From Candidatus Phycosocius bacilliformis (lineage in GTDB: Bacteria > Pseudomonadota > Alphaproteobacteria > Caulobacterales > Aquidulcibacteraceae), in contig NZ_BFBR01000006.1 in NCBI RefSeq assembly GCF_003112735.1, forward strand, positions 1 through 64,000: 64,000 bases of DNA. Direction: 5' to 3'. The notes below the pieces were generated by a model. It was not told the DNA's origin. It searched no databases and saw nothing but the letters and a program-made list of their open reading frames with translations. Shown one piece after another: positions 1,199 to 33,071 of the stretch. The translations under genes and the position numbers were made by a program. The first letter of the stretch is position 1, and each line of letters starts with the position of its first letter.

Positions 1199-1432
1199 AT
1201 CGTTTATCTAAGGTTTTTGTCTGGAAGCGCTGGTGATCCCTATGGTCCACCAAACCGCAAACTCAATTGTTCTTGCGACATCTGGGTGGTCAAGTGCGCA
1301 GCTTTGCTGCGTCGCGACGCGATCGGTTTTCAGAGAAAACCGACACTTGACGACCCAGATGTCGCGCTCAAACTCGATGAGCCGGTTTGGTGAAACAGGG
1401 ATTTCACCAAAGCGGTTCCAAGTGGAAATGAA
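1199..1432 (+). repeat. Family B nested-hairpin element, copy B1
   Basis: A unit of about 235 bp made of three palindromic modules. Module one is the GGTG...CACC hairpin near 1230-1255. Module two has long arms (1275-1296 and 1344-1365, GCGACATCTGGG... pairing with ...CCCAGATGTCGC) around a 47-bp core at 1297-1343. Module three is a TTTGGTGAAA...TTTCACCAAA hairpin at 1385-1411. The core itself holds two small hairpins, CGCAGC-TTT-GCTGCG and CGGTTTTC...GAAAACCG. The reverse complement of the unit recurs at 32255-32489, except that the core is flipped. A-family repeats abut both sides. No ORF within it looks genuine. Confidence 0.8.
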
Positions 1433-1738
1433 CATCCACACCACGCTGTCATCCCGGACGGCGTCAGCCGATCCGGGACCTTGTGCCGCACTGTCGCATG
1501 GAGGTCCCCGCTCTCCGCTTCGCTCCGGCGGGGATGACACGTGGTTAGAAACATCAACTTATACAACAACTTGTCATCCCGGACGGCGGTAGCCGATCCG
1601 GGATCTCATGACGCTAATACACAAGCTCTCCGCTTCGCTCCGGCGGGGGTGACATCGTTTTTGGAAGGAGTCTTATCTGGAAGCCCTTTTGACCTCAAAC
1701 CGACTTGCCTCGATGGCCGAGGGCCGATGTCTCGCACC

Positions 1739-2905
1739 CTAGCCCTTCATCCCCCACAGCCCCGCGAGGTTGTTTTTCTGCATATCGCTGGACCCGCCCA
1801 CGATGCGCATGCCCAGAAGATCGCGGACGTGGCGTTCCATGTCGAAGGCGTCTGACAAGGCATAGGCCCCAAGTACGCGCTGACAGATCAGGGCGATTTC
1901 TGCCGCGGTATCGGCGACAAACAGCTTAGCCATGCTCGATTCAATCCCGCAGGGCAGGTTTTGGGTGGCAAGCCAAGCGGCGTGATAGAGCATATGTCGA
2001 CAGGCTTCGAGCTTGGTGCGGGCTTCCACCAGAGCGTGGCGAATGGCCTGATGGCCCGAGATGACTTTGCCGAATTGCACCCGCTCTTGTGCATAGGCCC
2101 AGGCCTCTTCAACAGCGGCTTGTGCGATACCAAAGGTGACCGCGGTGATTTCAAGCTTTTCCACATCCAGCGCCCGACCCGCCAGCATGCCCCAGCCCTT
2201 GCCCCATTTTTCAGGCCCCCCGACGATGTGCGAGACAGGAATGCGCGCATTGTCGAAATAAACATCGCTCGACAACGTATAGCGCAGATTGACATGCTCA
2301 ATCGGCTGTAAGGTCACACCCGGCGTATCTTTGGGGATCAGAACAAAGGCGAGGTTCTTGCGCTTCTCATCGCTTTCGGTGCGGATCAGGCAATAGATAT
2401 AATCGGCAAAATCGGCCCCGGTGCACCAACGCTTGGCCCCATTGATGACCACATGATCGCCCTCAATCACCCCGCGCGTGGTAACACTGGACAAATCCCC
2501 CCCCACATCGGGTTCCGACAGGCCATAACAGAACATCAATTCGCCCTTGGCCAAGGCCGGCAGATAGGCCGCCTTTTGGGCCTCATTGCCATTTTCAGAA
2601 ATGTTCATCCCACCATAGAAGGCGCAATGGATGAAGGGCCCAGCCAGAAAGGCCCCTGCCCGGCACAATTCTTCAATCACGGCCACGGCGGCGTAAATGT
2701 CTTGGCCCACCCCGCCATAGGCCTCGTCCACCGTCAGGCCGCAAATGCCCATGTCTGCCAGTTCAGCGAATAGATCGCGCGGCCAGGTGTGAGTACGGTC
2801 CCACAGCTGACGCTTTTCGCGCGGGGCTTTGGTGTCCACAAAGCGGCGCAATTGCTGGCGCAGCGCCACCACATGATCAGGCTCTGCGGCAAAACTCGTC
2901 CCCAT
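1739..2905 (-). CDS. Acyl-CoA dehydrogenase family protein
   Basis: Predicted FAD-dependent alpha,beta-dehydrogenation of an acyl-CoA thioester in the cytoplasm. The 388 residues match the usual family length. The FAD/substrate-binding segment FCYGLSEPDVGGDLSS is at about 125-140, followed by the beta domain and the C-terminal helical domain. Near the C-terminus, RIVGGSSDMQ occupies the place where many family members carry the catalytic Glu in an I-Y-E-G-T type motif. That Glu is not evident, as in some heteromeric or atypical members. It is the last gene of an operon: it starts 2 bases after the crotonase stop, with GGGGAG upstream of its ATG. The substrate cannot be read from sequence. Confidence 0.9.
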   Translation of the reverse strand: MGTSFAAEPDHVVALRQQLRRFVDTKAPREKRQLWDRTHTWPRDLFAELADMGICGLTVDEAYGGVGQDIYAAVAVIEELCRAGAFLAGPFIHCAFYGGMNISENGNEAQKAAYLPALAKGELMFCYGLSEPDVGGDLSSVTTRGVIEGDHVVINGAKRWCTGADFADYIYCLIRTESDEKRKNLAFVLIPKDTPGVTLQPIEHVNLRYTLSSDVYFDNARIPVSHIVGGPEKWGKGWGMLAGRALDVEKLEITAVTFGIAQAAVEEAWAYAQERVQFGKVISGHQAIRHALVEARTKLEACRHMLYHAAWLATQNLPCGIESSMAKLFVADTAAEIALICQRVLGAYALSDAFDMERHVRDLLGMRIVGGSSDMQKNNLAGLWGMKG

Positions 2906-2907
2906 GA

Positions 2908-3714
2908 TTACTCCCCGCTCAATGTCATCGGCCGCTTTTCCTTGACGGCGGCAACAGCTTCGGCCCGGTCGGCCATCATATTGGACAAGGTTTCATACGC
3001 CACGGCCGCATCCATGGTCAGATTGGCGGCTTGGCGCAATTGCTGGTTCATCACGACTTTGGTCCAACGGACTGCCCAGCGCGGATTGCCGAGGATTTTT
3101 TGGGCAAGTTCTGCCACTTTGCCATCAAGCTCTGCGGTGGGAACGGCATAATTGACAAGGCCGATGCGGGCGGCTTCGGCCCCTGAGATGAGGTCACCTG
3201 TCAGCAGCATTTCCTTGGCGCGCGCCATGCCGATCAAAGCGGGCCAAATCACAGCCCCGCCATCGCCAGCCACAAGACCAACTTTCACATGCGGATCGCC
3301 AATCTTGGCGGTGTCCTCGGCAATGATCACATCGCACATCAACGCAATTGTTGCCCCCAGACCTGCCGCGGCACCATTAAGGCGGCAGATGATGGGCTTT
3401 TCAAGTTCAAGGAGTGACAGCACGATCCGCTTGGCATCGGGTGCAATGGCACGAAAGCTGGCGGGATTGCTGATTTGCTCGTCAAACCAATCCAAATCGC
3501 CACCGGCACAGAAGACGCGGCCCTTGCCGGTCAGCACGATCAGGTCGCTATCAGGGTCCCGCTGGCAGTCTGTGAAAACGCGGGCCAATTCCTCATGCAT
3601 GGCCTCATCCACGCCATTGACGGGATTGTTGCCGCTGATGGTAACGACCAGAACACGTGGGCCATAGCCTTGATCATAGGCAAATTGGATGCGGGAATAG
3701 TGCTGAAACGCCAT
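2908..3714 (-). CDS. Enoyl-CoA hydratase/isomerase family (crotonase) protein
   Basis: A 268-residue crotonase-fold protein. I chose the ATG at 3714 because GGGAGG lies just upstream and the family N-terminus aligns there; the frame remains open further upstream. The oxyanion-hole regions are FCAGGDL (about 68-74) and NGAAAGLGA (about 113-121). The two Glu residues used by classical hydratases are not seen: the first site reads GLGAT and the second reads DPHVKVG. The protein may therefore be an isomerase, hydrolase or lyase variant, with Asp of AGDGG (about 149-153) as a candidate acid/base. It is the middle gene of a three-gene operon with an oxidoreductase upstream and an acyl-CoA dehydrogenase downstream. 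Confidence 0.88.
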   Translation of the reverse strand: MAFQHYSRIQFAYDQGYGPRVLVVTISGNNPVNGVDEAMHEELARVFTDCQRDPDSDLIVLTGKGRVFCAGGDLDWFDEQISNPASFRAIAPDAKRIVLSLLELEKPIICRLNGAAAGLGATIALMCDVIIAEDTAKIGDPHVKVGLVAGDGGAVIWPALIGMARAKEMLLTGDLISGAEAARIGLVNYAVPTAELDGKVAELAQKILGNPRWAVRWTKVVMNQQLRQAANLTMDAAVAYETLSNMMADRAEAVAAVKEKRPMTLSGE

Positions 3715-3728
3715 TGCGCCCTCCCGGC

Positions 3729-4739
3729 CTAGATGCGTGCAAGTCGGCGGCCAAAAGTGGCACCGGGTTGGAACAGGGCACAAAAGGCCGCAGGCAGGCT
3801 GTCGATGCCCTCAGAGATGACTTCCTTCAGCTTCAATTGGCCGCTGTTGATCATGGCGGCGGCTTCGGCCTGCGCCTCGGGGAAAGCACGCAAATCGTCA
3901 AACACAACAAGGCCTTCCATCTTCAAGCGATGGGTGATGAAGCGGTCGGTATTGCGAATACCATGCCGGTCTGCCGGGGCGACATTATAGTCTGCCACTT
4001 GGCCTGAGACCACGATCCGGCCAAAGGGCCGCATGAGGGGCAGAATGGTGTCAATCATCTTGTTGCCGACATTATCGAACAAGATGTCGGCCCCTTCGGG
4101 CATGGCTGCCGCCAAGTCTGCCGCAAAGGTGGGTGAGCGATAATCAATCACCGCATCAAAGCCTGCTTCCTGCAAAAGCCAGTCAGATTTGGCCCCGGCA
4201 CTGGCAACACCCACAACCCGCGACGCCCCCCAGGCTTTAGCCAATTGACCGGCTGTGGCCCCCACAGGCCCCGCCGCCGAGGTGACGATCACCCGGTCTC
4301 CCGGCTTGATCTGACCAACCCGCTTCAGGCCGAACCAAGCCGTCATGCCCGGCACACCCAACACCCCAATCCACGCCGACAGTGGCACACCAAGGTCTGG
4401 CAGTTTGGCGCAATAACCCCGGCCATTGGAAATCGTCTGGTCCGCCCAGCCAGAGCCTAAAGTCACCAATTGGCCAATCTCGAAGGCGGGGTTGAGGCTT
4501 TCAACCACATGGCCGACAGCAAAGCCGTCAATCACATCGCCAATCTGCAAGGCCCCTGCGTAGGAAGCCGTCCCCGAGAGGCGCGAGCGTGTACCCGGAT
4601 CAGCCGAGACAAAAGCATTGGCGACGCGGAATTGCCCCTCTTTCAAAGCAGGCGGGTCAAGCGCTTCAAGTTTGAAGTCCTCCAAGCTGGGGGTTCCGGT
4701 GATGTGGCGGGCCAGGGTGATGCGGTGAATCTGTGTCAT
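3729..4739 (-). CDS. NADP-dependent medium-chain reductase (zinc-independent, CurA/PTGR-like)
   Basis: A 336-residue member of the medium-chain dehydrogenase/reductase superfamily of the zinc-independent type that reduces C=C bonds of enones using NADPH. The N-terminus resembles CurA and prostaglandin reductase (ITLARHITGTPSLEDF). The Rossmann motif VTSAAGPVGATAGQLAK is near residue 160. No zinc-binding Cys cluster is seen. The ATG at 4739 was preferred over the upstream extension because the extension has no homologous character. It is the first gene of the leftward operon with the crotonase and acyl-CoA dehydrogenase. It is divergent from the ThDP enzyme gene, so the 131-bp gap should hold both promoters. 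Confidence 0.88.
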   Translation of the reverse strand: MTQIHRITLARHITGTPSLEDFKLEALDPPALKEGQFRVANAFVSADPGTRSRLSGTASYAGALQIGDVIDGFAVGHVVESLNPAFEIGQLVTLGSGWADQTISNGRGYCAKLPDLGVPLSAWIGVLGVPGMTAWFGLKRVGQIKPGDRVIVTSAAGPVGATAGQLAKAWGASRVVGVASAGAKSDWLLQEAGFDAVIDYRSPTFAADLAAAMPEGADILFDNVGNKMIDTILPLMRPFGRIVVSGQVADYNVAPADRHGIRNTDRFITHRLKMEGLVVFDDLRAFPEAQAEAAAMINSGQLKLKEVISEGIDSLPAAFCALFQPGATFGRRLARI

Positions 4740-4870
4740 GATCCTAGCTTGGCCCGCATTCAGGCCCCTGTCAGCAAACATCTGCATCTGATGTGTCAGC
4801 CCGCCGTGACAGCCCACGCCACCTCAGGCAAGGATGGGACACGACATGTGTGATGAAACAGAGGCAAGTC

Positions 4871-6433
4871 ATGGGCGAAGAAGCACAACAGCGGACTGGG
4901 GCTGATCAATTAGTCGCAACCCTTGCCGAACATGGGGTGAGCGCCTGTTTTGCTAATCCTGGCACCAGCGAGATGCATTTGGTGCAGGCCCTGGATCGAG
5001 AGCCGCGCATTCGCTCGGTCTTGTGCTTGTTTGAAGGTGTGGCAACCGGGGCCGCCGATGGCTTTGCCCGCATGGCGGGAAAGCCTGCCATGACGCTTCT
5101 TCACCTCGGGCCGGGTTATGCCAATGGTGCGGCCAATATCCATAATGCGCGGCGCGCCTATGCGCCCATGGTCAATGTGGTTGGCGATCATGCCACCTAT
5201 CACCGCACTTTGGATGCGCCCTTGGCGTCTGATATTGAAACCCTCGTCAAGCCCAACTCGCGTTGGGTCGGGGTGGTGGAACAGGCCAGCGAGGCCGGCG
5301 AAAAGGCCGCAAAAGCCTTTATCGAGACCATGGGCCCACCGGCAGGGCCGGTAAGTCTGATTCTGCCAGCCGACAGTGCCTGGAACCCTGCAGGCCCAGA
5401 CGCGCCCCGTGTTACGTTACCAGGTCTATCCCTTGTTGACCCCACCCAAATCGAGGCGGTGGCCGATGCGATTGCTCTGGCCCAGAAGCCGGTAATCCTG
5501 GTCAATGGCCCTGCCCTGTACGACGAGGCGGCGCTGACAACCATGTCGCGCTTAAAGGCTGCTGGCGTCCGGGTGTTATGCGACACATTTGTTGGTCGTC
5601 TGGCGCGCGGTGCAGGCCGCTTTGGACCCGACCGCATGGCCTATTTTGCCGAAATGGCGATGGAGGATTTGGCCGGCGTTGATCTGATGATTCTGGCAGG
5701 CACGGGCGTGCCGTGCGCTTTCTTTGCCTATCCCGGCAAACCGAGCATTTTGGTGCCAGAAGGCTGCACCACCATCGAGCTTTCAGCCCGCAGTGAAGAT
5801 ACGGCTGAAGCTTTGGCCGCCCTTGCTGATGCTTTGGATGCGCCCGACGCCCCACCGGCCCCAACCCGTACCCAACACCCGATGCCAACCGGCAAGATCA
5901 CGCCTTACACATGCGCCACGTCCCTAGCACGCCATATGCCCGATCAAGCCATTATTTCCGATGATGCGGTGACCGCAGGCCTGCCCCATTTCATGGCCAC
6001 CCAAACTGCCGCCCCTCATGATTGGTTGTTCCTGACCGGTGGGGCGATTGGCCAAGGCCTGCCTTTGGCGGTTGGGGCCGCCGTGGCCGCGCCCGACCGC
6101 AAAGTCATTGCACTAACCGGCGATGGCGCGGGCATGTATACGCTGCAAGCTTTGTGGACGATGGCGCGCGAACGCCTGCCTATCGTAACCGTGGTGTTTG
6201 CCAACCGCTCCTATCGCATTTTGAATATTGAGATGGGCCGCACCGGTGCGGGCCAGCCAGGACCCGCCGCCAGTTCCATGCTGTCGCTTGATAAACCTGC
6301 CCTCGACTGGGTAAAATTGGCCGAAGGTCAAGGGGTTGAGGCGGTATCTTGCGACACCGCCGAAGCCTTCGACACTGCCCTCGCCCGCGCGATTGCCGCC
6401 GATGTGCCAGTCCTGATCGAAGCGGTGATGTGA
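4871..6433 (+). CDS. Thiamine-diphosphate enzyme, acetolactate synthase large subunit-like
   Basis: A 520-residue ThDP-dependent enzyme with the three-domain layout of acetolactate synthase and benzoylformate decarboxylase. The catalytic Glu that activates ThDP is Glu55 in FEGVATGAADG. The C-terminal ThDP/Mg site shows GDGAGMYTLQALW, then the Asn of FANRSYRI. The ATG at 4871 was chosen because AGAGG lies 6 bases before it; frames further upstream are open but poorly supported. No regulatory small subunit lies nearby, so a catabolic decarboxylase or lyase role is as likely as branched-chain amino acid synthesis. It is a single gene, divergent from the reductase operon, followed by a palindromic element. 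Confidence 0.88.
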   Translation: MGEEAQQRTGADQLVATLAEHGVSACFANPGTSEMHLVQALDREPRIRSVLCLFEGVATGAADGFARMAGKPAMTLLHLGPGYANGAANIHNARRAYAPMVNVVGDHATYHRTLDAPLASDIETLVKPNSRWVGVVEQASEAGEKAAKAFIETMGPPAGPVSLILPADSAWNPAGPDAPRVTLPGLSLVDPTQIEAVADAIALAQKPVILVNGPALYDEAALTTMSRLKAAGVRVLCDTFVGRLARGAGRFGPDRMAYFAEMAMEDLAGVDLMILAGTGVPCAFFAYPGKPSILVPEGCTTIELSARSEDTAEALAALADALDAPDAPPAPTRTQHPMPTGKITPYTCATSLARHMPDQAIISDDAVTAGLPHFMATQTAAPHDWLFLTGGAIGQGLPLAVGAAVAAPDRKVIALTGDGAGMYTLQALWTMARERLPIVTVVFANRSYRILNIEMGRTGAGQPGPAASSMLSLDKPALDWVKLAEGQGVEAVSCDTAEAFDTALARAIAADVPVLIEAVM

Positions 6434-6457
6434 GGCATTCTCATTTTATGACTTTGA

Positions 6458-6600
6458 CATGGTTTTGGTGACCCTTTTGGCCACCAAAACCATGTCGCTT
6501 ATTGTCTTAGGGAGATTTAGCGCGTCAAGGTCAGATTTCCTTTGGAAATCTGTCGCAGAGCGACGCAGCAAAGCTGCGACCTTGACCCGAAAAATCTCCC
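6458..6600. repeat. Family B nested-hairpin element, copy B3
   Basis: Two modules are seen. A hairpin at 6458-6494 has arms CATGGTTTTGGTG and CACCAAAACCATG. A long palindrome at 6510-6600 has outer arms GGGAGATTT / AAATCTCCC and inner arms GTCAAGGTC / GACCTTGAC. It encloses the hairpins AGATTTCC-TTT-GGAAATCT and CGCAGC-AAA-GCTGCG. The GCGACGCAGCAAAGCTGCG core also occurs inside B1 and B2. Further right, GCCTTTGCC...GGCAAAGGC (about 6619-6650) forms another hairpin. The whole 6434-6789 gap therefore holds palindromes and no supported gene. It may also terminate the upstream ThDP gene. Confidence 0.65.
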
Positions 6601-6789
6601 AAGCAAACTATTAACAGGCCTTTGCCTAGGCAGAGCCTGCGGCAAAGGCGATCTAAGTAAAAATGATTCAGAAACAGCAATACTTACTCGGTGCTTCGCT
6701 TTCGGAATGCACCCTACGCCACCACCGTCCAAAGCTCGGTCATTTTGGGGCCCCGCAACTTTGATCCAAAAGCGATCATAGCGCGGTCC

Positions 6790-8322
6790 TTACAACGGTA
6801 TATTGTCGTGTTTCTTCCATGGGTTCTCAAGCTTCTTGTGCTTGAGGGCGCGCAGAGCCTTGGCGACTCGGCGACGGGTTGAGTGGGGCATGATGACATC
6901 ATCAATATAGCCGCGCTGGGCTGCCACAAACGGATTGGCGAAGCGGTCTTGATATTCAGCCGTGCGGGCCGCAATCGCATCCGGATCGCCCATATCGGCT
7001 CGGAAGATGATTTCCACCGCCCCTTTGGCCCCCATCACGGCGATTTCTGCCGTGGGCCATGCATAATTGACGTCGCCGCGCAAATGCTTGGAACTCATCA
7101 CATCATAAGCCCCACCGTAGGCTTTGCGGGTGATGACGGTCACTTTCGGCACGGTGGCTTCAGCAAACGCAAACAACAGCTTTGCGCCATGTTTGATCAA
7201 GCCGCCATATTCTTGCTTGGTGCCCGGCATAAAGCCAGGCACATCAACAAAGGTCACAATGGGGATATTGAAGCAATCACAGAAGCGGACAAAGCGGGCG
7301 GCCTTGCGGCTGGCATCAATATCCAAAACGCCCGCCAGACTCATGGGCTGGTTGGCAACCACGCCAACGGTTGCCCCCTCGATCCGAGCAAAAGCGGTAA
7401 TGATATTCTTGCCGAAGTCCTTGGCGATCTCGAAATAATCGCCTTCATCGACGACCTTCTCGATCAATTCCTTCATGTCATAGGGCTTGTTGGGATTGGC
7501 CGGTACAAGGCTATCGAGACTCATGTCAACCCGTTCCGGGTCATCATGGGTCGGCCGGGTGGGCGGCTTTTCGCGGTTTGAGAGTGGCAAGAAATCAACC
7601 AAGCGGCGCATTTGGAACAAAGTGTCGAAATCATTGTCAAAGCTGCCGTCGATCACGCCAGACTTTGCACCATGCACACTTGCCCCACCCAATTCTTCAG
7701 CCGTAACGACTTCATTGGTGACGGTTTTGACCACGTCAGGCCCCGTCACAAACATATAGCTTGTGTCCTTCACCATGAAAATGAAATCGGTCAAAGCTGG
7801 CGAATAGACGTCACCACCCGCGCAAGGCCCCATGATGACGCTGATTTGCGGGATCACACCGGAAGACATGACGTTTTCCATGAAGATGTCAGCATAACCC
7901 GCCAAAGAATCAACGCCTTCTTGAATACGTGCCCCACCCGCATCAAACAGCCCGATAACGGGCGCGCCATTGCGGGCCGCCATTTGCTGAACCTTGACGA
8001 TCTTAGCCGCATGGGTCAGCGATAAGGACCCGCCAAACACGGTGAAGTCTTTTGAAAACAGATAGACAAGGCGGCCATTGATCGTGCCTTGGCCGGTGAT
8101 CACGCCATCGCCGGGAAACTTCTGGGCATCCATCCCAAACTCAGTACAGCGATGCTCGACGAACATATCAAATTCTTCAAAGCTACCCTCGTCGAGCAAG
8201 ATCTCAATGCGCTCGCGCGCGGTCAGCTTGCCCTTGGCATGCTGGGCATCAACGCGACGCTGACCACCACCGGCACGCGCTTTGGCGCGCTTGTCCTCAA
8301 GGGCTTGAAGAATGTCTTGCAT
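6790..8322 (-). CDS. pccB: Propionyl-CoA carboxylase beta subunit (acyl-CoA carboxyltransferase)
   Basis: The carboxyltransferase subunit moves CO2 from carboxybiotin to propionyl-CoA (or a related acyl-CoA) to give methylmalonyl-CoA. The 510-residue length and the whole sequence match PccB. The N-terminus has the [18 protein letters not shown] signature, [13 protein letters not shown] lies at about 89-101 and [15 protein letters not shown] at about 124-138. The C-terminal carboxyltransferase domain shows [15 protein letters not shown] and [12 protein letters not shown]. The biotin carboxylase/BCCP partner (PccA) is not in the window. Propionyl-CoA handling fits a neighbourhood rich in acyl-CoA enzymes. 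Confidence 0.93.
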
Positions 8323-8421
8323 GGGCCTGTTCCCCGATCCTGTGACGTCAGCAGGTCCGTCGCCCGCCGCGCAATCGGGTTAGCGGCACATAGCCGCGCT
8401 TGCAAGCCGTCCTGGCGGCGA

Positions 8422-9012
8422 TCACGCCAGGGCGGGCAAATCCAAAATGCTCTCACACCGCTTAATCCACCTCTGGATCGCGGGATAACGCATAAGCTCA
8501 AATCCGCCTTGATCGGCAAACCGGGTGTAAGGCAATAGGGCAATGTCGGCGAGCGTAAGGTCTGCCCCAACAAAGAAGGCATGCTGGCTCAAATGCTCCT
8601 GCATTCGGGTCAGGACTTTTGCCCCACGTGGCAGGAGTGAAGGATCAATTTCGGCCTCCGACAGGCCCAAGAGATGAACTTTGGCACGGCGCACCGCGAT
8701 GACGGGTTCATGGCTATATTGCTCCCAAAACAGCCATTCGAACATTTTTGCCCGCAAAAAGCGGTCCTGTGGGATGAGCCGACTGCCTTCTGCCAGATAG
8801 AGGATTATGGCATTGGACTGGGCTAGGGTGTTGCCGTCAGCCAGACGAACCACAGGCACCTCACCAAAGGGATTGAGGGCACGAAAGCCAGGTTCTGCAG
8901 TTTGCCCGGTCAAAGCCAAAACCTCGTGCCAGACATAGGGCAAGCCCAATAGGTCGGACGTCCAGCGCACCTTCAAACAATTGCCAGAGCGATCATCACC
9001 ATAAATCTCCAT
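8422..9012 (-). CDS. Glutathione S-transferase family protein
   Basis: A 196-residue cytosolic GST. The N-terminal thioredoxin-like domain (about 1-75) contains NPFGEVPVVRL and the Glu/Gln-Ser turn as AQSNAIILYLAEG. The C-terminal all-helical domain includes GADLTLADIALLPYTR, the usual N-capping motif. The start at 9012 gives the normal compact N-terminus (MEIYGDDRSGNCLKV); an in-frame upstream extension is not typical. It is transcribed leftward, upstream of pccB. The substrate is unknown. Non-catalytic or dehalogenase-like roles remain possible. Confidence 0.85.
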   Translation of the reverse strand: MEIYGDDRSGNCLKVRWTSDLLGLPYVWHEVLALTGQTAEPGFRALNPFGEVPVVRLADGNTLAQSNAIILYLAEGSRLIPQDRFLRAKMFEWLFWEQYSHEPVIAVRRAKVHLLGLSEAEIDPSLLPRGAKVLTRMQEHLSQHAFFVGADLTLADIALLPYTRFADQGGFELMRYPAIQRWIKRCESILDLPALA

Positions 9013-9250
9013 GCCTGACCGCCCCTTCTCAATGTTCAAGATCACGCGAGGCCTAACACAACTATGCGATAGTTTGTTTCAAGAGTGCGGCTAAACACTG
9101 CAAAATCGTCCGCTGTGTGGTCCAGCCTCGACGTGTTGATCCAGTCGGTTTAAGGCAGACACGCTGGCGGGGATGCCGACATCCCCCGCTTAGGTGCCGG
9201 ATGCTGGCCCTATTCTGGTAACCATGGAAGACCGCAAGGAAAGACCGACT

Positions 9251-10390: not shown

Positions 10391-10490
10391 ACGACTTTAC
10401 TTTGGGCAAGCATCTTATTTCAGCCTAACCTTACGACAGTTTCACTCGACAATTGACGTGGACATTGTCACCACATGTCGGGTGCATTGC
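10391..10490. other. Intergenic segment with a small palindrome
   Basis: Between the KAS III-like gene and the next ORF lies GACAAT (10448-10453) pairing with ATTGTC (10464-10469) across 10 bases. It could be an operator or an mRNA hairpin. No other feature is seen here. Confidence 0.25.
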
Positions 10491-10886
10491 ATGTCGGGGT
10501 TTGAGTACATGTTGATCTTCGCCATTTTGGCCGCAGGTTTTGGTGCCTCTGGGGCAGAATCAAAACCCGAGGCAGAGCTTCTTTTGCCAGCACCGGCCAA
10601 TGTCACACTCAATGAGCCACCAAATCACCTTGAGCATCCATTTGAGCAATCCCCGCCAGAGCGGGGCTATATGGTGGTTGTTCAGCCTTCAGGAGAATCG
10701 ACGGATGGCGAGGCGGCAATGCGCCAAGATGGCGGCCCGCGCTGGCTTGAACCTCCCGGTGGCTGGGTGAGCCCGTCCTTGAAATCAAGGCCCCATAAAG
10801 TCCACCCGCTGACCCGCCCTGCCTTGCAGCCCGACGTGCCGACCCACCCTGCTGAGGACATGCGGCGCGAAGGCCAGCAGCGATAG
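10491..10886 (+). CDS. Possible small exported Pro-rich protein
   Basis: An open frame of 131 codons fills most of the 544-bp gap between two confident genes. The start at 10491 gives a plausible signal peptide (MLIFAILAAGFGASGA, about 7-22). It is followed by a hydrophilic, Pro- and Glu-rich region with no recognisable domain. The frame continues upstream into the preceding gene, and an alternative ATG at 10509 gives a shorter signal peptide. No strong ribosome binding site is visible. Codon use is GC-rich like the neighbours, so chance opening cannot be excluded. Function unknown. Confidence 0.35.
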   Translation: MSGFEYMLIFAILAAGFGASGAESKPEAELLLPAPANVTLNEPPNHLEHPFEQSPPERGYMVVVQPSGESTDGEAAMRQDGGPRWLEPPGGWVSPSLKSRPHKVHPLTRPALQPDVPTHPAEDMRREGQQR

Positions 10887-10934
10887 CAGTCTTGCCCTGA
10901 TGCAAAGGCCGCAGGTCTGGTTTAGTCTTCGACC

Positions 10935-12752: not shown

Positions 12753-12763
12753 TCAAGCCCCGC

Positions 12764-24049: not shown

Positions 24050-24100
24050 GTTCTTGCCTCCCTGAGCGGCAGTATTTTGGCGGACTGTGACGCAGATTTG

Positions 24101-25447: not shown

Positions 25448-25526
25448 GAGTAAGTCCCGACCTTTCTCAGCCTTTGATACAGGCTACGACATGGTGAACC
25501 GGAAAGTTACAGACGCGCGCTTTAAA

Positions 25527-26987
25527 TCACCGAACCGGCACAGCCTTCCAGAAATAACGGGTGAAGCCGCGCCGGTCATCCCATTCTTTAACCCGGAAGG
25601 CCATGCGCACCTCTGTGCCACTGTCAATTTCGCCAGGTTCGACATCGGCAATATCCATGAAGATCCGCCCACCCCCGTCAAAATCGATCTGACCATAGTG
25701 ATTGGGTGGGTTCATGGAATAGGTCAGATAATCGGCTGAATAGGTCAGAATCCGGGCCGCCCGCTCAGCAAACTTATAGGGTTCCTGGGTATCGACTTCA
25801 GGCGCATTGGGCGCAACCGAAATCCGGGTTCTGGGATATTGAACCGTGCCGGTGACTTTGCACTTGCCGCCCACCAGACCCAGTATGCCATCATTATAGC
25901 GATAAAGCGTGGTCAGCGCGGTCTTATTGTCCTTCTCTGCCCGCATCCCCTTGTCCCACTCAACCAGACCATTGAACACAAGATATTTCATATAACTGGT
26001 TTCTTCCTTGCGGTTGGCCAACCAGCCCGACAGGCCTTTGGCTGGTTTGAAAGTGGCAATCTCGTCTGTGACCTTAAACACCAAAGCCTCACAGCCTTGG
26101 CCAAATTGGGCCACCAGAATGGTCTGGCCAGGATGGGCTTTTTCAAGAACGCCTGCCAGCATCAGGAGGCCATGGGCACAGCCTGTTTCCCCGACTTGGG
26201 CTGCGAGATTATCAACCACCGCTTCTGGTTTCAGGCCAATTTTCTTGGCAAGACCTTCAGCCACACCTTTGAATGTGCTTGGCAAAATGAAATGGTCAAT
26301 GTGGGCAGGCTCAAGCCCAGCATTGGCCAAAGCGCGCTTAAGAACCGGGGGAACGATCTTTTGAAAACCCTCGTCTCGGATCCAACGCTCTTCCCAATGA
26401 TAATCGAAATCCTCATCCGATCCCCGGAAATGGTCGACAAAATCAACCGTACTGGCTGCCCCGCCCAGCCATTCGGCCAGAATCTGGTCGCGACCAACCA
26501 CCATGGCAGCGCCCCCGTCGCCATAGTCAAACTCTTGGGCGGAAACGGCTTTGGGTACGCGCCGATCACCGGCGGCGACCAGAATGGCCGGATGGGCCCC
26601 ATTGGGTGCGGCTTGGGCCACACAGAGGGCTTGAGCCAGAGCTGTCAGTCCAGCTTTTTGTGACCCTGATATGTCAGCAGCCTGAATAGTGGCATCCAGC
26701 GTCAAAGCGGCCTGCACAATCCCCGCATTCAGACGATCTGCGAATGGAGCCGTGGTGGAGGCAAAGTAAAGCGCCTTGATGTGGGAACGGTCATCATCAT
26801 TGCCCAGCGCGTCACGGGCTGCTTCGACGGCAAACGTGATCGCATCCTCATCCCAATTGCCAAAGGAGCGCTCGCCCTTTGCCTTGCCCATCAGATTGGG
26901 TGCAAGCCACGCATTGGCCTGTGCCATGGCTTTTTTCTGCAAGCGCAAGCGGGGCACATAGGCCCCATAAGCCGTGATGCCGATCAT
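25527..26987 (-). CDS. HMG-CoA-synthase-like protein fused to a DUF35/OB-fold domain
   Basis: A 486-residue fusion. Residues 1-340 have the thiolase-like fold of 3-hydroxy-3-methylglutaryl-CoA synthase; residues 355-486 form a DUF35-type rubredoxin/OB-fold module (GGKCKVTGTVQYPRTRI, then an OB barrel). The segment that should hold the catalytic Cys reads DISGSQKAG, with Gln110 where I place the Cys by eye. The region that should supply the catalytic His reads HFILPSTFKG. The zinc ribbon keeps only one Cys. It may thus be a structural or acyl-binding partner, or a decarboxylase-like variant, instead of a true synthase. GGGAG precedes the ATG. A thiolase gene downstream is the likely partner. 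Confidence 0.85.
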   Translation of the reverse strand: MIGITAYGAYVPRLRLQKKAMAQANAWLAPNLMGKAKGERSFGNWDEDAITFAVEAARDALGNDDDRSHIKALYFASTTAPFADRLNAGIVQAALTLDATIQAADISGSQKAGLTALAQALCVAQAAPNGAHPAILVAAGDRRVPKAVSAQEFDYGDGGAAMVVGRDQILAEWLGGAASTVDFVDHFRGSDEDFDYHWEERWIRDEGFQKIVPPVLKRALANAGLEPAHIDHFILPSTFKGVAEGLAKKIGLKPEAVVDNLAAQVGETGCAHGLLMLAGVLEKAHPGQTILVAQFGQGCEALVFKVTDEIATFKPAKGLSGWLANRKEETSYMKYLVFNGLVEWDKGMRAEKDNKTALTTLYRYNDGILGLVGGKCKVTGTVQYPRTRISVAPNAPEVDTQEPYKFAERAARILTYSADYLTYSMNPPNHYGQIDFDGGGRIFMDIADVEPGEIDSGTEVRMAFRVKEWDDRRGFTRYFWKAVPVR

Positions 26988-27056
26988 GGCGCCAATCTCC
27001 CTGAAACTTGTTTTGGTTCTTGTCAGACCCCTTTGTGGCCCGAGGTCGTAACCTTT

Positions 27057-28451
27057 TCAAGATGGCGGGATCAATTTGGTTAGATTGGCCGCCGCGGGCA
27101 TGGCGAACTGGCGAAACTTCTTCAAAATGGCCATGCGGGCGCTGTCAGATGGATCGACCGAGGCGATCACTTTGCCAAACCCGTCCAGCCGGGATTCGCG
27201 GATCCAGTCGCGCAAGTGCGGGTCCTGGCTCCAGGCCATTTGGTTCATCATATTGCCCAAGACAGCACGGGGATATTGGATCAATTGGCGCGGTAACGGA
27301 ATGGAGCCGCAGAGGCTATTCTTCTTGGCATCATCATCATAATGGGCCTCAACATAGGCAGTAAGTGCGGCACTAAAGGCCGGTTGAGGAATGCGGATCA
27401 TTTGCGGCACGATCAGGCCTTCTTGAAAAACCGGCACGGGCGGGCGATCCTCAACCGCGCTGGCCGAGCAATCAATATAGAGCGTGCCGGGGCCGAAGGC
27501 TTCCGTCCCCCCTTCCAAACTCACCAGAGTGGGGGAAATGGCGCTGACCCGGCCCTTGCGGATCACTTTTTTGATCCGGGCCAATTGCGCCACCTCACCT
27601 TCTGACACGGTGGCATAGCGATGGATTGTCGGGCGCACCATGGGGTCGATCCGCAACATGACACCGCAGGCTTCCAGCCGGTCAAACAGATCATCGACAT
27701 CTTTGGCCAGTGCACAGGCCTCCATCATATCAGCTTGGCCCTTGATAGTTTCTTCAAAAAACTCAAGCCCGGGCTGGGTCTTGCGTCGATTAAGCAGCCA
27801 GGAATCCCGTGGCATGATCCAACTGATGCTGTCAGGGTCAGCCCCCGACGCCAGAAGCCAGCACACAGCATCCATGCCCGTCTTGCCTGCCCCGACAATC
27901 ACAAAATGCTTGGGCATGTCGGCCCCGCGCTTCCACAAATGCGGCAGACCATTGAGCGGCATGAAGTCCACGCCCGCCTCAATGTGGAATTTGGGCTGAT
28001 GGGTGGACGGAACCGTCGTGCCGAAATAGGTCGCATCCACCGTCTTCTTGCGGATTTGAATATGGGTTTCTTGGCCTGACAGCAGAGAAACACAAAGACC
28101 ATCGCCGCGATAATCGGTCATGGGCAGATAGCGGACGCGGCCACTGGGCAGCAGGCGCTGGTTCATCACCTTATCAAAATAGCCGCTGACCTCAGGCCCA
28201 GAAGCCAATTCATACAAACCCTTATTGATCCCGCTTTGATCAATCCGATCCTCACCAAGCCGCAGCGAATTCACCCCGTAAAAGGCTGACGGCTGGTGCA
28301 ATGTCACAAAGCTATAGGCATCATTCCAGTGCCCGCCGGGCTTGCCATGTCGGTCGACAATGGTGATGTGGGCCTTGGTTTCATCGAGCAATGTGTCGGC
28401 AAAGGCCAGACCAACGGCCCCAGCCCCCACGATCAAATAATCGGTTTCCAT
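27057..28451 (-). CDS. FAD/NAD(P)-binding oxidoreductase, flavin monooxygenase-like
   Basis: A 464-residue flavoprotein. The FAD dinucleotide motif GAGAVGLAFAD is at about 8-18, followed by GKPGGHWNDAYSFVTLHQPS, which resembles flavin-dependent monooxygenases. A second Rossmann motif, IVGAGKTGMDAVCWLL, near residue 190 suits NAD(P)H. The ATG at 28451 was chosen because AGGAAGGG precedes it; the upstream extension has no family character. No membrane segment is seen. The substrate is unknown. It is separated from the HMG-CoA-synthase-like gene by 69 bp and shares its direction, so co-transcription is plausible. Confidence 0.82.
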   Translation of the reverse strand: METDYLIVGAGAVGLAFADTLLDETKAHITIVDRHGKPGGHWNDAYSFVTLHQPSAFYGVNSLRLGEDRIDQSGINKGLYELASGPEVSGYFDKVMNQRLLPSGRVRYLPMTDYRGDGLCVSLLSGQETHIQIRKKTVDATYFGTTVPSTHQPKFHIEAGVDFMPLNGLPHLWKRGADMPKHFVIVGAGKTGMDAVCWLLASGADPDSISWIMPRDSWLLNRRKTQPGLEFFEETIKGQADMMEACALAKDVDDLFDRLEACGVMLRIDPMVRPTIHRYATVSEGEVAQLARIKKVIRKGRVSAISPTLVSLEGGTEAFGPGTLYIDCSASAVEDRPPVPVFQEGLIVPQMIRIPQPAFSAALTAYVEAHYDDDAKKNSLCGSIPLPRQLIQYPRAVLGNMMNQMAWSQDPHLRDWIRESRLDGFGKVIASVDPSDSARMAILKKFRQFAMPAAANLTKLIPPS

Positions 28452-28514
28452 CAATGACCCTTCCTGCGGCACGTCCAGTCCCAATCAGGACAGCTTAGCG
28501 ACTTGCCGGCAGGA

Positions 28515-29993
28515 TTACCACCAGGGCTTGGCCTTGGCCGTGAAGCCAGCTTGGGCTTCAAGGACGCCTGCCACCGCAAAGACGGTTTCCTCATCCAGCG
28601 CCTTGCCAATGACTTGCAGCCCCAAGGGCAGCCCTTGTGCATCCAGCGCGGCGGGGACCGAAATCCCCGGCAGTCCTGCCAAATTGGCCGTCACGGTGAA
28701 GACGTCATTGAGGTACATTTGGATCGGGTCGGCGCTCTTCTCACCCAGACCGAAAGCTGCTGACGGGGCTGTCGGGGTCAAAAGCGCATCGCATTTCTGC
28801 CAGGCTTGCCGGAAATCCTCTGCAATCCGGCTGCGGACGCGTTGGGCACGCAGATAATAGGCATCATAATAGCCAGCCGACAGCACATAGGTGCCGATCA
28901 AAATGCGCCGCTTCACTTCATTGCCGAAACCCTGCGCGCGGCTTTGCTCATAGGTCTCCGTCAATGTGTTGCCTGCCACACGCTTGCCAAAGCGCATGCC
29001 ATCATAGCGGGCCAAGTTTGAGGAGGCCTCCGCAGGGGCGACGATATAATAGCAAGGCAAGGCGTATTTGGTGTGCGGCAGCGAGACATCAACAATCTCG
29101 GCCCCGGCATCTTTAAGCCAGGCAATCCCATCGCTCCACAGCTTCTCAATTGCCTCTGGCATGCCGTCGACGCGATATTCTTTCGGCACCCCAATGCGCA
29201 GCCCCTTCACCCCGCGGCTGACGGCGGCGGCAAAATCGGGCACTGGAACCTGCAGGCTGGTGGAATCCTTCGGATCATGGCCGCACATGCTTTCCAAGAG
29301 AATGGCGCTGTCGAGCACATTCTTGGCAATCGGGCCTGCTTGATCAAGCGAGCTGGCAAAAGCGACAATGCCATAGCGGCTGGCCCGGCCATAGGTTGGC
29401 TTGATGCCAACTGTCCCAGTAAAGGAAGCGGGTTGACGGATCGAGCCACCAGTATCGGTGGCCGTGGCCCCCAAGCACAAATCAGCCGCCACCGCCGCAG
29501 CCGATCCACCCGACGAGCCGCCGGGGGTTAGCGCGGCATTGGCCCCGTCTTGGCGCTTCCACGGATTAACGACAGGACCAAAACGGCTGGTTTCATTGGA
29601 CGAGCCCATGGCAAACTCATCCATATTGAGCTTGCCCAGCATCACAGCCCCATCGCGCCAAAGCTGGCTGGTCACCGTGCTTTCATAGGTTGGCGCAAAC
29701 TCGCCCAAAATGTTGGAGCAAGCTGTCGCCCGCACACCTTGTGTGCAAAACAAATCCTTGATGCCGAGGGGAATGCCTTCAAGCTTGCCCGCATTGCCCG
29801 CTTTCAAGCGCGCATCTGAGGCGGCTGCCATGTCCAACGCCTTTTCGGGCGTGGTCAGCACATAGGCATTGAGACTGGGATTGGCGGCTTCAATCGCTTG
29901 GTTGAACGCTGTGGCCAGTTCGACCGCCGAGAAGGCCTTTTTGGCCAGGCCGTCGCGGGCGGCGGCCAATGTCAATTCGGTCAGCTTGCTCAT
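28515..29993 (-). CDS. gatA: Aspartyl/glutamyl-tRNA amidotransferase subunit A
   Basis: The amidase subunit of the GatCAB complex hydrolyses glutamine and passes ammonia to misacylated Glu-tRNA(Gln) or Asp-tRNA(Asn). The 492-residue length is normal. The Ser-cisSer-Lys triad is evident: Lys in [13 protein letters not shown] (about 79), and serines in the [17 protein letters not shown] and [11 protein letters not shown] stretches. It follows gatC directly, with the gatA ATG at 29993 abutting the gatC stop. gatB is not in the window. Presence of this system fits an organism without GlnRS, in line with alphaproteobacteria. Confidence 0.97.
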
Positions 29994-30281
29994 TTATTCC
30001 ACCACTTTCGGCACAACAAAGAAACCATCAGCGCTTGCTGGCGCATTGGCCACAATGGCAGCAGCCTGGTCACCATCACTGATGACATCCTCACGCAGTG
30101 GCAGCGTGGTTTCGACCGCCGAGGTCATGGGCTCCACCCCGTCAATATCAACCTCATTGAGCATGTCGATCCAGCCCAAAATGGTGTTCAATTCCCCTGC
30201 CAGCGCTTCCAATCGCTCTTCGGGTTCATGAATGCGCGCCAGCCTCGCGACACGACGCACGGTATTTGCATCTACTGCCAT
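29994..30281 (-). CDS. gatC: Aspartyl/glutamyl-tRNA amidotransferase subunit C
   Basis: The 95-residue GatC subunit stabilises the GatA/GatB interface. Family blocks VRRVARLARIHEPEE (about 8-22) and LNTILGWIDMLNEVDIDGVEP are clear. The C-terminus (DGFFVVPKVVE) is standard. It is the first gene of a gatC-gatA operon. AAGGA lies about 9 bases before the ATG at 30281. Confidence 0.96.
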   Translation of the reverse strand: MAVDANTVRRVARLARIHEPEERLEALAGELNTILGWIDMLNEVDIDGVEPMTSAVETTLPLREDVISDGDQAAAIVANAPASADGFFVVPKVVE

Positions 30282-30404
30282 GGAATTAGGGTCCTTGTTG
30301 TCGCCCTGTCGCTAGCGACTTAGGCGACCAAGAGCAAGGATTCTGGCCAGTTGCTGCTGGAGGTAAGCTGACACAGAAATCTGCGTGTCTGCGGTCTGAA
30401 AAGT

Positions 30405-30596
30405 TCAGGGAAGTGTGTTGGCCGAAACCACAGCTTGGTCGCGGCACACAAGGCTGCTGAGATTTGTGAGGCTGACATCACTTGGGCAGATTTTCATGTG
30501 CTGAGCGTAGGCGTCCTGCGCATCCGACATAGACGAAAACAATACCAAACTACACAGGACGACCCAAAGTGCGGCCGAATGAATTAAATCACGCAT
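30405..30596 (-). CDS. Small putative exported protein with two Cys
   Basis: A 63-residue ORF with a convincing Sec signal peptide: basic start MRDLIHSA, hydrophobic core LWVVLCSLVLFSSM, and cleavage expected near SDAQDAYA. The short mature part holds two cysteines (in MKICPSD and SLVCRDQ) about 16 residues apart, which could form a disulfide. GAGG lies 6 bases upstream of the ATG at 30596, in favour of real translation. I do not recognise a family. It is unrelated to the flanking gatC and MFS genes. Confidence 0.5.
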   Translation of the reverse strand: MRDLIHSAALWVVLCSLVLFSSMSDAQDAYAQHMKICPSDVSLTNLSSLVCRDQAVVSANTLP

Positions 30597-30899
30597 AACT
30601 AACCTCAAACCCCACTATATTTCCCGACAATCGCTTCTGCTTGGCCCTTCGTTGCAGCGCCAAGCGACGCCTTCTCATACGTCATGGCAATCATGATCTT
30701 GAGCCGACACCCACAATTCTACCCAGGGGTAAGTATGCCACCCCCGTCTGTCATTTAAGGTTAGACAAAACCTGCAAAATTGTCATCCCGCACGACTGCA
30801 TAGCACCATTGTGTGACGCTTTTTTAGGCTTAACCTATGGTCGTTGACTGCTGGATGGTCATGCGTCAGGTAAGTCAGGCTTTTTTTGAGGATGATTCT

Positions 30900-32147
30900 G
30901 TGAATTCTTCCCATCCCGCTTCAACAAAATCCGGCTTTGTCTTTGTTTTTGTGACAATCACACTCGATATGCTCGCTCTGGGCCTCATTGTGCCAGTCTT
31001 GCCCAACCTGCTCAAACAAATGACCGGTGGCGATGTTGGCGAGGCAGCCCATATGATTGGCATTTTCGGGCTCTTCTGGGCCTTTATGCAATTTGTTTCT
31101 ATGCCCATTATGGGTGGGCTCTCAGATCAGATCGGGCGCAAACCCATTCTTCTCATTTCCAACTTTGGGCAGGCAGCGGCCAATTTGATCACGGCATTTG
31201 CGCCCAGCTTCTGGGCCTTGTTGTTGGCGCGCACATTGTCCGGAGCGGTAAGCGCTGTGGGGTCGACTGCCAATGCTTATGTAGCTGACACCGAACCGCC
31301 TGAAAGCCGGGCGCAGAAATTCGGCATGCTGGGGGCTGCCTTCGGCCTGGGCTTTATTCTGGGCCCTGCGATTGGTGGCTTTCTGGGAAAGATCAACCTG
31401 CACCTGCCGTTCTTCGTGGCCGCAGGCCTGTGCACATTCAACGGCTTCTTCGGCCTAATCCTGCTCAAAGAATCGCTCAAGCCGGAACATCGGCGTCCGT
31501 TTGACTTGGTTCGGGCAAACCCAATCGGCTCGATCCATTTCCTGTGGACCAATCCACGTATCCTAACTTTGGCGATCATTCGCGGCCTGTGTGATTTTGC
31601 CCAAGTGGTTTATCCGACCACATTCGTCCTGTATGGCTTTTATCGTTACGGTTGGGGACCTGACGTGGCAGGCCTAACTTTGGGACTGGTGGGTTTAAGT
31701 TCAGCCATCGTGCAAGGTGGGTTGGTTGGCCCCATCATCCGAAAATTGGGGGAAGTCTCGACCTTGGTATTGGGACTTATTCTGGGGGCCTTGGGCTATG
31801 GCCTCTATGCGTGGGCACCCAATCAATATGTGTTGTGGATGTGCGTGCCCATTGCCTCGCTCGCGGGCATTTATGGCGCAGCCATTCAATCCTTGCTGAC
31901 CCGTCAGATTGGACCAGACGAACAAGGCCGCCTGCAAGGCGCTATCGGGGCTGTTCAAGCTGGCACAAGCATGGTTGGCCCGATTGTCTTTACTGCGATA
32001 TTTGCTTGGTCAATTGCCGCCGATCGCGCGACTACCCTGCCCGGCCTTGCATTAGGCTTGTCCTGTATTTGCCTGATCATTGCGACCCTGATCGCACTTA
32101 CCAGTGCGCGCCAATTCAGGGCCGATCAGGCCTTGGCGCAATCCTAG
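30900..32147 (+). CDS. MFS transporter, TetA-like drug/proton antiporter family
   Basis: A 415-residue inner-membrane protein with about twelve hydrophobic segments in the TCR/Tet family of the major facilitator superfamily. Motif A is in the loop after the second helix (GGLSDQIGRKPILL), and motif C-like GAAFGLGFILGPAIGG marks the antiporter group. The GTG at 30900 was chosen because GAGG lies 8 bases upstream and the family N-terminus begins there; the frame is open back to 30837. Family members export tetracyclines or other small molecules, but sequence alone cannot show drug resistance. It stands alone between a small exported-protein gene and a repeat array. Confidence 0.88.
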   Translation: MNSSHPASTKSGFVFVFVTITLDMLALGLIVPVLPNLLKQMTGGDVGEAAHMIGIFGLFWAFMQFVSMPIMGGLSDQIGRKPILLISNFGQAAANLITAFAPSFWALLLARTLSGAVSAVGSTANAYVADTEPPESRAQKFGMLGAAFGLGFILGPAIGGFLGKINLHLPFFVAAGLCTFNGFFGLILLKESLKPEHRRPFDLVRANPIGSIHFLWTNPRILTLAIIRGLCDFAQVVYPTTFVLYGFYRYGWGPDVAGLTLGLVGLSSAIVQGGLVGPIIRKLGEVSTLVLGLILGALGYGLYAWAPNQYVLWMCVPIASLAGIYGAAIQSLLTRQIGPDEQGRLQGAIGAVQAGTSMVGPIVFTAIFAWSIAADRATTLPGLALGLSCICLIIATLIALTSARQFRADQALAQS

Positions 32148-32156
32148 GCCAGATTC

Positions 32157-33071
32157 TCATCCCCGCTGGAGTGAAGCGGAGAGCGGGGACCTTTTTGTGT
32201 ATTAGCTTCATGAGATCCCGGATCGGCTACCGCCGTCCGGGATGACTGAGGTTTGTTGATTTCCATTTGGAACCGTTTGGTGAAACCTGTGTTTCACCAA
32301 AACGGCTCAGCTAGTTTGAGCGCGACATCTGGGTCGTCAAGTGCGCAGCTTTGCTGCGTCGCGGTGCGATCGGTTTTCGAAGAAAACCGACACTTGACCA
32401 CCCAGGTGTCGCAAGAACAATTGAGGTTGCGGTTTGGTGACCAGAATGGGCACCAAAGCGCTTCGAGACAAAAATCTTCTCTAAACGATGTCATCCCCGC
32501 CGAAGCGCAGCGAAGAGCGGGGACCTCCTTATGCATGTGCACCACAAGGTCCCGGATCGGCTTCGCCGTCCGGGATGACACCGCTATGTATAATTTAACT
32601 TTTTTAACAATGTCATCCCCGCCGGAGCGAAGCGCAGAGCGGGGACCTCCATGCGCATGTGCGCCACAAGGTCCCGGATCGGCTGCGCCGTCCGGGATGA
32701 CACCGCTATGTATAATTTAACTTTTTTAACAATGTCATCCCCGCCGAAGCGCAGCGAAGAGCGGGGACCTGCTTACGCTTTTGCGGCACAAGATCCCGGA
32801 TCGGCTACCGCCGTCCGGGATGACACCCATTTATAAATGCAACCAACTCCAAACGATGTCATCCCCGCCGAAGCGAAGCGAAGAGCGGGGACCTCCATGC
32901 GCACGTGCGGCACAAGGTCCCGGATCGGCTTCGCCGTCCGGGATGACACCCATTTATAAATGCAACCAACTCTAAACGATGTCATCCCCGCCGAAGCGCA
33001 GCGCAGAGCGGGGACCTCCATACGCACGTGCGCCACAAGGTCCCGGATTGGCTATCGCCGTCCGGGATGAC
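32157..33071 (-). repeat. Right array of six A-family palindromic repeats
   Basis: Copies lie at 32157-32246, 32490-32579, 32612-32701, 32734-32824, 32858-32947 and 32981-33071, all opposite in orientation to the left array. They read GTCATCCCCGC... to ...GTCCGGGATGAC on the plus strand. Copies 3 and 4 share the 32-bp spacer at 32580-32611 and 32702-32733. Copies 5 and 6 share a different 33-bp spacer at 32825-32857 and 32948-32980. So the array grew by at least two separate duplications of repeat plus spacer, with a period of about 122-123 bp. No cas genes are nearby and the spacers are not unique, so this is not a CRISPR. Confidence 0.88.
32255..32489 (-). repeat. Family B nested-hairpin element, copy B2
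   Basis: The reverse complement of this 235-bp unit matches B1 (1199-1432) nearly throughout, including both GGTG/CACC hairpin modules and the outer flanks. The arms at 32322-32343 and 32391-32412 enclose a 47-bp core at 32344-32390. On the plus strand the core reads in the same direction as in B1 (CGCAGCTTTGCTGCGTCGC...), although all the sequence around it is inverted. The core is therefore flipped relative to its flanks. A-family repeats abut both sides, as for B1. Confidence 0.82.

What the first reader, a model, noticed from the sequence alone, without database searches (positions are those of the whole stretch)
1275..32412. A 47-bp core is flipped inside two otherwise matching nested palindromes
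B1 (1199-1432) and the reverse complement of B2 (32255-32489) match across both flanks and both long arms. The segment between the arms (1297-1343 and 32344-32390) is in the opposite orientation relative to those flanks. On the plus strand both cores begin CGCAGCTTTGCTGCGTCGC, although the surrounding sequence is inverted. The 22-bp arms end in CAAGTG and CACTTG. An inversion between the arms (site-specific, or by repair of a cruciform) would explain this. The same core in B3 suggests a module that can turn or be exchanged within a mobile palindrome.
Basis: seen in the sequence. Interest (0 to 1): 0.7.

Follow-up and report, generated by a model that had tools for sequence, protein, structure and literature searches.

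The report
Intergenic palindromes whose heads turn around
In this freshwater bacterium and its close relatives, scattered hairpin-shaped DNA repeats carry a small central piece that points either way in different copies, most simply because DNA copying or repair now and then flips what lies between two short mirror-image arms and recombination between copies then spreads both versions.

Summary
The flip is real. B1 and reversed B2 match at 82% and 85% in their two flanks, but their 47-nt cores match (91.5%) only when B2's core is left unreversed (51% otherwise). Of 94 scored copies in 8 of 9 same-genus (Aquidulcibacter) genomes, 52 have one orientation and 42 the other. The element folds as one long imperfect palindrome with a three-hairpin head. 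In 9 of 19 probable orthologous loci species differ in head orientation. Flank sequence does not predict orientation in five genomes tested; in the window's genome neither does core sequence, and five identical cores occur both ways round. A marker base in the arm shows at least two inversion boundaries. A sister family (7 of 31 classifiable copies) and the three-copy B3 family also turn. Best explanation: rare arm-bounded inversion (template switching or cruciform repair), with both states spread by gene conversion. Serine recombinases were not detected in 6 of 9 genomes, Y1 (RAYT) transposases in 0 of 9. The mechanism is known from yeast and chloroplasts; whole bacterial repeat families that keep both states appear new. 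Coexistence of both states in one culture is untested.

The parts
1225..1274 (+). B1, outer half A (TTTGGTG-like hairpin sequence, CAATTGTT spacer)
1275..1296 (+). B1, A-side arm; marker mismatch base at 1288; inner GTCAAGTG 1289-1296
1297..1343 (+). B1, core (head): hairpin 1 at 1297-1311, middle hairpin 1312-1322, hairpin 2 at 1323-1343; AB orientation
1344..1365 (+). B1, B-side arm; marker base at 1352
1366..1425 (+). B1, outer half B (GTTTGAGC-type spacer on the reverse strand, TTTGGTGAAAC hairpin sequence)
32262..32321 (-). B2, outer half B (element lies reversed relative to B1)
32322..32343 (-). B2, B-side arm; marker base at 32335
32344..32390 (+). B2, core: same strand sense as the B1 core although the flanks are reversed, i.e. 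BA orientation
32391..32412 (-). B2, A-side arm; marker base at 32399
32413..32475 (-). B2, outer half A
6524..6586 (-). B3, head and inner arms (GTCAAGGTC...GACCTTGAC) of a sister family; head and inner arms reversed relative to the G003 and G004 copies
458..518 (-). Diverged copy of sister family C (GTCAAGTCC...GGACTTGAC); its orientation could not be classified

Best explanation
B1 and B2 are copies of a genus-specific intergenic palindrome: outer halves A and B, 22-nt arms with a retained mismatch, and a three-hairpin head. Shown by sequence: the head occurs in both orientations relative to A/B, flank sequence does not predict which, probable orthologs in different species differ, and the inversion boundary lies in the arms at two or more positions. 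Inferred: the head inverts in place when the two arms pair, by inter-strand template switching during replication or by processing of an extruded cruciform; where the switch falls relative to the marker base decides whether that base stays, swaps or is homogenised. Inferred: gene conversion among copies then overwrites neighbours and spreads either orientation, so the two states behave like alleles of a repeat. No dedicated enzyme is needed.
For: Both states common: 52 AB and 42 BA of 94. 9 of 19 ortholog groups mixed, with 0 of 58 flank pairs reversed A-for-B. Flank sequence unlinked to orientation in 5 of 5 genomes tested (p 0.116-0.997); G000 flank tree needs 7 changes, shuffles 8.0. Five exact cores in both orientations in G000. 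Marker base kept in 36 of 42 BA copies, swapped in 6 of 42, swapped in 0 of 52 AB copies (p 0.0064). Sister family C: 7 of 31 flipped, with swapped or homogenised/altered arms in 6 of the 7 against 2 of 24 (p 0.00025). A copy of the B3 family is turned too. Conversion: A flank closer to a paralog than to the ortholog in 37 of 40 pairs, B flank 27 of 31, core 35 of 41. No A-core-A or B-core-B among 85 copies. Very stable fold, z -12.2. Known precedent for spacer inversion by template switching (PMC8604942, passages) and for 5-50 bp inversions between 11-24 bp repeats in chloroplasts (PMC12928735, passages).
Against: In G003, G006 and G008 core sequence is linked to orientation (p 0.0045, 0.035, 0.005), and outside G000 a 46-nt core is found only in BA among scored copies (24 of 32 BA, 0 of 34 AB), as expected if old oriented heads are copied rather than freshly turned; one dropped contig-end copy (G008 C167) breaks this link. 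The arm mismatch persists in 90 of 92 copies, so switching in the arms is rare. Counting every non-standard marker pair gives no difference between orientations (7 of 42, 4 of 52, p 0.21). No case shows an inversion with everything else unchanged. Most orthology calls rest on one flank. Spacer inversions in PMC8604942 involved 2-5 bp changes, far shorter than 47 nt.
Confidence: 0.6

Rival explanations
1. Gene conversion only: two or three inversions happened long ago and oriented versions have since been copied between loci. In the window's genome, AB cores overwrote BA cores by pairing upside down over the roughly 91 nt of arm-core-arm.
For: Strong concerted evolution; core length tied to orientation outside G000; in G006 the hairpin-1 loop TAT occurs in both orientations with different middle loops, as a partial exchange would give.
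Against: Needs repeated upside-down exchange over a short stretch in G000 to put five exact cores in both orientations, yet crossovers through the head, which would give A-core-A or B-core-B, are 0 of 85. Does not by itself explain homogenised arms in family C.
Confidence: 0.27
2. A site-specific recombinase acts on the arms and turns the core.
For: Inverted arms flank the core; tyrosine recombinases occur in 9 of 9 genomes.
Against: Serine recombinases not detected in 6 of 9 genomes, among them G000, G003, G006, G007 and G008, which hold most flips. Boundaries differ between copies and arms differ between three families.
Confidence: 0.04
3. Rolling-hairpin or hairpin-opening step during spread of the element, as in flip/flop viral termini, randomises head orientation.
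For: Stem topped by several hairpins; dispersed copies; both orientations frequent.
Against: No Y1 transposase in 9 of 9 genomes; elements are internal, not terminal; other HUH or hairpin nucleases were not searched.
Confidence: 0.08
4. Assembly artefact.
For: Most genomes are drafts; 15 of 94 copies have under 100 nt of flank on one side.
Against: Mis-joining would yield A-core-A and B-core-B copies: 0 of 85. The single-contig genome G003 has 6 AB and 11 BA.
Confidence: 0.01

Closest known systems
Spacer inversion and arm homogenisation by template switching between short inverted repeats (PMC8604942; abstract and passages seen)
   Same: Spacer between inverted arms turns, arms may be homogenised, reversible, arms longer than 9 bp
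   Different: Described there at single yeast genes with changes of 2-5 bp; here a 46/47-nt three-hairpin head in a dispersed bacterial repeat, spread by exchange between copies
Small hairpin-associated inversions of chloroplast DNA (PMC12928735 and PMC3631202, passages seen; Kelchner and Wendel 1996 only as cited there)
   Same: 5-50 bp inversions between 11-24 bp inverted repeats, recurrent; 22-nt arms and a 47-nt core fall in that range
   Different: Single plastid sites, not a multi-copy bacterial repeat family
REP/BIME elements with RAYT transposases (PMC3733652, passages seen)
   Same: Intergenic, palindromic, multi-copy, genus-level range; REP-like arrays lie beside B1 and B2
   Different: REPs are 20-40 bp single hairpins; this is a ~200-nt nested palindrome and 0 of 9 genomes hold a Y1 transposase
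Parvovirus terminal hairpins with flip/flop orientation (recalled; a listing seen)
   Same: A stem topped by more than one hairpin whose order exists in two orientations
   Different: Terminal, viral and enzyme-driven there; internal and chromosomal here

Membership tests
Template-switch / hairpin spacer inversion | Spacer inverted between inverted-repeat arms, flanks unchanged in orientation | tested here: met
   52 AB and 42 BA of 94; 9 of 19 ortholog groups mixed; 0 of 58 pairs with flanks reversed
Template-switch / hairpin spacer inversion | Boundaries anywhere in the arms; arm differences kept, swapped or homogenised | tested here: met
   Kept 36, swapped 6 of 42 BA copies; family C: kept 1, swapped 2, homogenised or altered 4 of 7
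Template-switch / hairpin spacer inversion | Clean inversion between near-identical relatives | tested here: inconclusive
   No such pair among the fetched genomes; copies are overwritten by conversion
REP/BIME | 20-40 bp single hairpin unit | tested here: not met
   ~200-nt nested palindrome
REP/BIME | Cognate RAYT (Y1) transposase in the genome | tested here: not met
   0 of 9 genomes, while 5 of 14 control genomes ring
MITE | Target-site duplication at the ends | not tested
   Empty and filled sites were not compared
Serine-recombinase invertible element | Serine recombinase present | tested here: not met
   3 of 9 genomes only; not detected in G000, G003, G005, G006, G007, G008
Tyrosine-recombinase invertible element | Recombinase present and fixed crossover site | tested here: inconclusive
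   Genes in 9 of 9; crossover site not fixed
Known structured RNA (Rfam) | Match above the family's gathering score | tested here: not met
   Only a tRNA in the window

The most novel reading that the evidence does not exclude
These palindromes are a superfamily of bistable, head-turning elements: cruciform-forming repeats whose three-hairpin head switches orientation continually in living cells, possibly through a hairpin-opening step linked to their spread, giving each genome dozens of independent two-state sites.
Probability: 0.12. Interest if true: 0.85.

Novelty: new variant of a known kind. Interest (0 to 1): 0.5.

Why it matters
Inversions between short mirror-image repeats are usually seen one site at a time. 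Here one bacterial genus offers 94 scored copies of one palindrome and about 30 of a sister family, with a built-in marker base that records where each inversion began. That makes the relative rates of template switching and of gene conversion between repeats measurable in natural bacteria. It also warns that repeat orientation and paired changes in such hairpins need not reflect selection.

Tried and rejected
Self-similarity of the core as cause of the apparent flip: rejected (54.5% self-match against 91.5%). One fixed orientation: rejected (52 and 42 of 94). Two subfamilies with their own flanks: not supported by the shuffle tests or the G000 flank tree; a genus-wide flank tree of 81 copies needs 22 orientation changes, for which no shuffles were printed. 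Assembly artefact: rejected (0 A-core-A or B-core-B of 85). Known RNA: no Rfam match but a tRNA. Phage carriage: no hit for one exact pattern in viral contigs. Gene context by longest open frames was uninformative: of 45 copies, 14 fell inside short, probably spurious frames and 4 at an edge. Orthology of family C from short flanks was swamped by REP-like matches. Covariation in a chosen 20-row alignment rests almost wholly on one C-G/G-C pair of hairpin 2: weak evidence for selection on structure.

Rows left out: 106 pattern hits became 95 and then 94. The 12 dropped: 3 of the B3 family, 1 of family C (window 458-518), 1 unrelated, and 7 with truncated, deleted or contig-end cores. Of those 7, 6 have the A side and 1 the B side next to hairpin 1. 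Of the 94, 9 have only one side called. Family C: 34 of 41 stretches gave a unit and 31 were classifiable.
Full report
OBSERVATION. B1 and B2 were read on both strands. The flanks of B1 match those of reversed B2 (82.1% and 85.3%), but the cores match only when B2's core is not reversed (43 of 47 against 14 of 47 ungapped; 91.5% against 51.0% gapped). B1's core against its own reverse complement gives 54.5%, so palindromic self-similarity is not the cause. The arms are 22 nt with one mismatch in B1 and two in B2. The mismatch base GGGT-N-GTC keeps its flank identity in both elements: G on the A side and C on the B side.

ANATOMY. Each element has two outer halves, A (with CAATTGTT) and B (with GAGTTTGAGC), each carrying a TTTGGTG...CACCAAA stretch. 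Then come the arms, then a head of three hairpins; in B1 CGCAGC-TTT-GCTGCG, TCGC-GAC-GCGA and TCGGTTTTC-AGA-GAAAACCGA. Single-stranded DNA of 1212-1425 folds as one long stem with the head on top (-74.1 kcal/mol; 0 of 200 shuffles as stable; z -12.2); as RNA z is -9.1. The only Rfam match in the window is a tRNA.

DISTRIBUTION. The exact arm-spacer-arm pattern occurs in 8 of 61 genomes searched, all of the window's genus, and in none of the other 24 genera. An exact head pattern scanned against one genome for each of 84,980 species gave 58 stretches. The genus name is inferred from these titles. With BLAST, 8 of 9 genomes of the genus have copies. G005 has none of this family but has family C.

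ORIENTATION CENSUS. Among 94 scored copies 52 are AB and 42 BA: G000 18/10, G003 6/11, G006 5/6, G007 11/3, G008 10/8, G001 1/2, G002 0/1, G004 1/1. All 85 copies with both sides called have one A and one B side. That argues against mis-assembly and against crossovers through inverted heads. G003 is a single contig.

SAME LOCUS, DIFFERENT HEAD. Flanks of up to about 3.9 kb were compared between genomes. One search lists 58 pairs; 0 of 58 show A matching B in reverse, which a turned element would give; 5 show A matching B without reversal and 1 shows A matching A in reverse, which I read as neighbouring copies or other repeats. With filters on position and length, which by construction keep same-side, same-strand matches, there are 19 groups, 9 of them mixed in head orientation. 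Two mixed groups are anchored on both sides: G000 C6:234207 (AB) with G002 and G003 (BA), and G001/G003 (BA) with G008 (AB; both sides, the B side alone). Most of the other mixed groups rest on one side because contigs end at the repeats. Independent insertion at the same site cannot be ruled out for those.

WHAT TRAVELS WITH ORIENTATION. Flank sequence does not: shuffle tests for A and B flanks in five genomes give p 0.116 to 0.997, and in G000 a flank tree of 25 copies needs 7 changes where shuffles need 8.0 (152 of 500 as low). Core sequence does in G003, G006 and G008 (p 0.0045, 0.035, 0.005) but not in G007 (0.479) or G000 (0.457). Five exact cores occur in both orientations in G000, and none in the other genomes. 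Outside G000 a one-base-shorter core (46 nt) occurs in 24 of 32 BA and 0 of 34 AB copies; a dropped contig-end copy (G008 C167) has such a core in AB sense. This is evidence against free turning everywhere: outside G000, ready-made oriented heads seem to be copied between loci. One search shows copying: the A flank is closer to a paralog than to the ortholog in 37 of 40 pairs, the B flank in 27 of 31, the core in 35 of 41 (4 ties, 2 closer to the ortholog).

WHERE THE INVERSION STARTS. The marker base splits BA copies into those where it kept its side (36 of 42; boundary inside GTCAAGTG) and those where it moved with the head (6 of 42; boundary further out). No AB copy of 52 is swapped (p 0.0064), though counting every non-standard pair gives no significant difference (7 of 42 against 4 of 52, p 0.21). 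So at least two inversions with different boundaries occurred. The mismatch persists in 90 of 92 copies, so boundary events are rare compared with copying.

SISTER FAMILIES. Family C (arms GTCAAGTCC) has a similar plan and matches in 9 of 9 genomes. I examined 41 stretches; 34 gave a unit and 31 were classifiable: 24 one way and 7 the other. Of the flipped copies 1 has unchanged arms, 2 swapped arms and 4 homogenised or altered arms; 2 of 24 unflipped copies have homogenised arms (Fisher p 0.00025; classes were set after seeing the data and copies are related). In the B3 family (three close copies) the window's copy has head and inner arms reversed relative to those of G003 and G004 (by eye). 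The same behaviour in three families argues for a property of the palindrome and not of one sequence.

MECHANISM. Template switching between inverted-repeat arms is known to invert spacers and homogenise arms (PMC8604942, passages), and loop inversions occur in bacterial rRNA stems (PMC8794818, passages). Chloroplasts show inversions of 5-50 bp between 11-24 bp repeats (PMC12928735, passages; small ones also in PMC3631202, passages); the first of these papers attributes them to recombination in stem-loops. The 22-nt arms and 47-nt spacer here fall in that range. Serine recombinases were not detected in 6 of 9 genomes, Y1 transposases in none of 9; tyrosine recombinases are in 9 of 9 and cannot be excluded. 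I therefore favour rare arm-bounded inversion plus frequent gene conversion; how much of the present pattern each explains is open.

NOVELTY. I found no paper on this repeat or its turning head. The searches were for the genus name (20 papers hold it, 10 listed, none read) and for palindrome and inversion terms; most subscription papers are not held, so this is weak evidence of absence. The process is of a known kind. The new part is a group of bacterial repeat families in which both states persist at many loci and across species.

Noticed in passing
611-1587, 32565-33071 and 48696-48833: REP-like arrays (GTCATCCCGGACGGC; 15 matches with up to 2 mismatches in the window against 0.29 expected), with many copies spaced about 122-125 nt, beside B1 and B2.
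   Followed up: partly
G000 C6:234207 locus with its counterparts in G002 and G003: REP-like pairs flank the element in G000 but are absent at the matching site in G002 and G003 (by eye), so the REP arrays seem to have arrived independently of the element.
   Followed up: no
1288/1352 and the matching base of other copies: A mismatch is kept in the otherwise well-matched arm in 90 of 92 copies; it may limit perfect pairing or be passive hitch-hiking.
   Followed up: partly
hairpin 2, fourth pair from... alignment A1 columns 51 and 67: A C-G to G-C exchange across the stem (12 and 7 of 20 rows, 1 unpaired), mostly in G000 and G007.
   Followed up: partly
G000 C8:173572 and 174033; G006 C53:103817 and 104145: Pairs of copies about 460 and 330 nt apart with the same head orientation, possibly local duplications.
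   Followed up: no
G003 C1:2287764: A copy with the second part of the head and one arm missing; the junction lies at a shared TCGCAAG stretch (by eye), as a short-homology deletion would leave.
   Followed up: no
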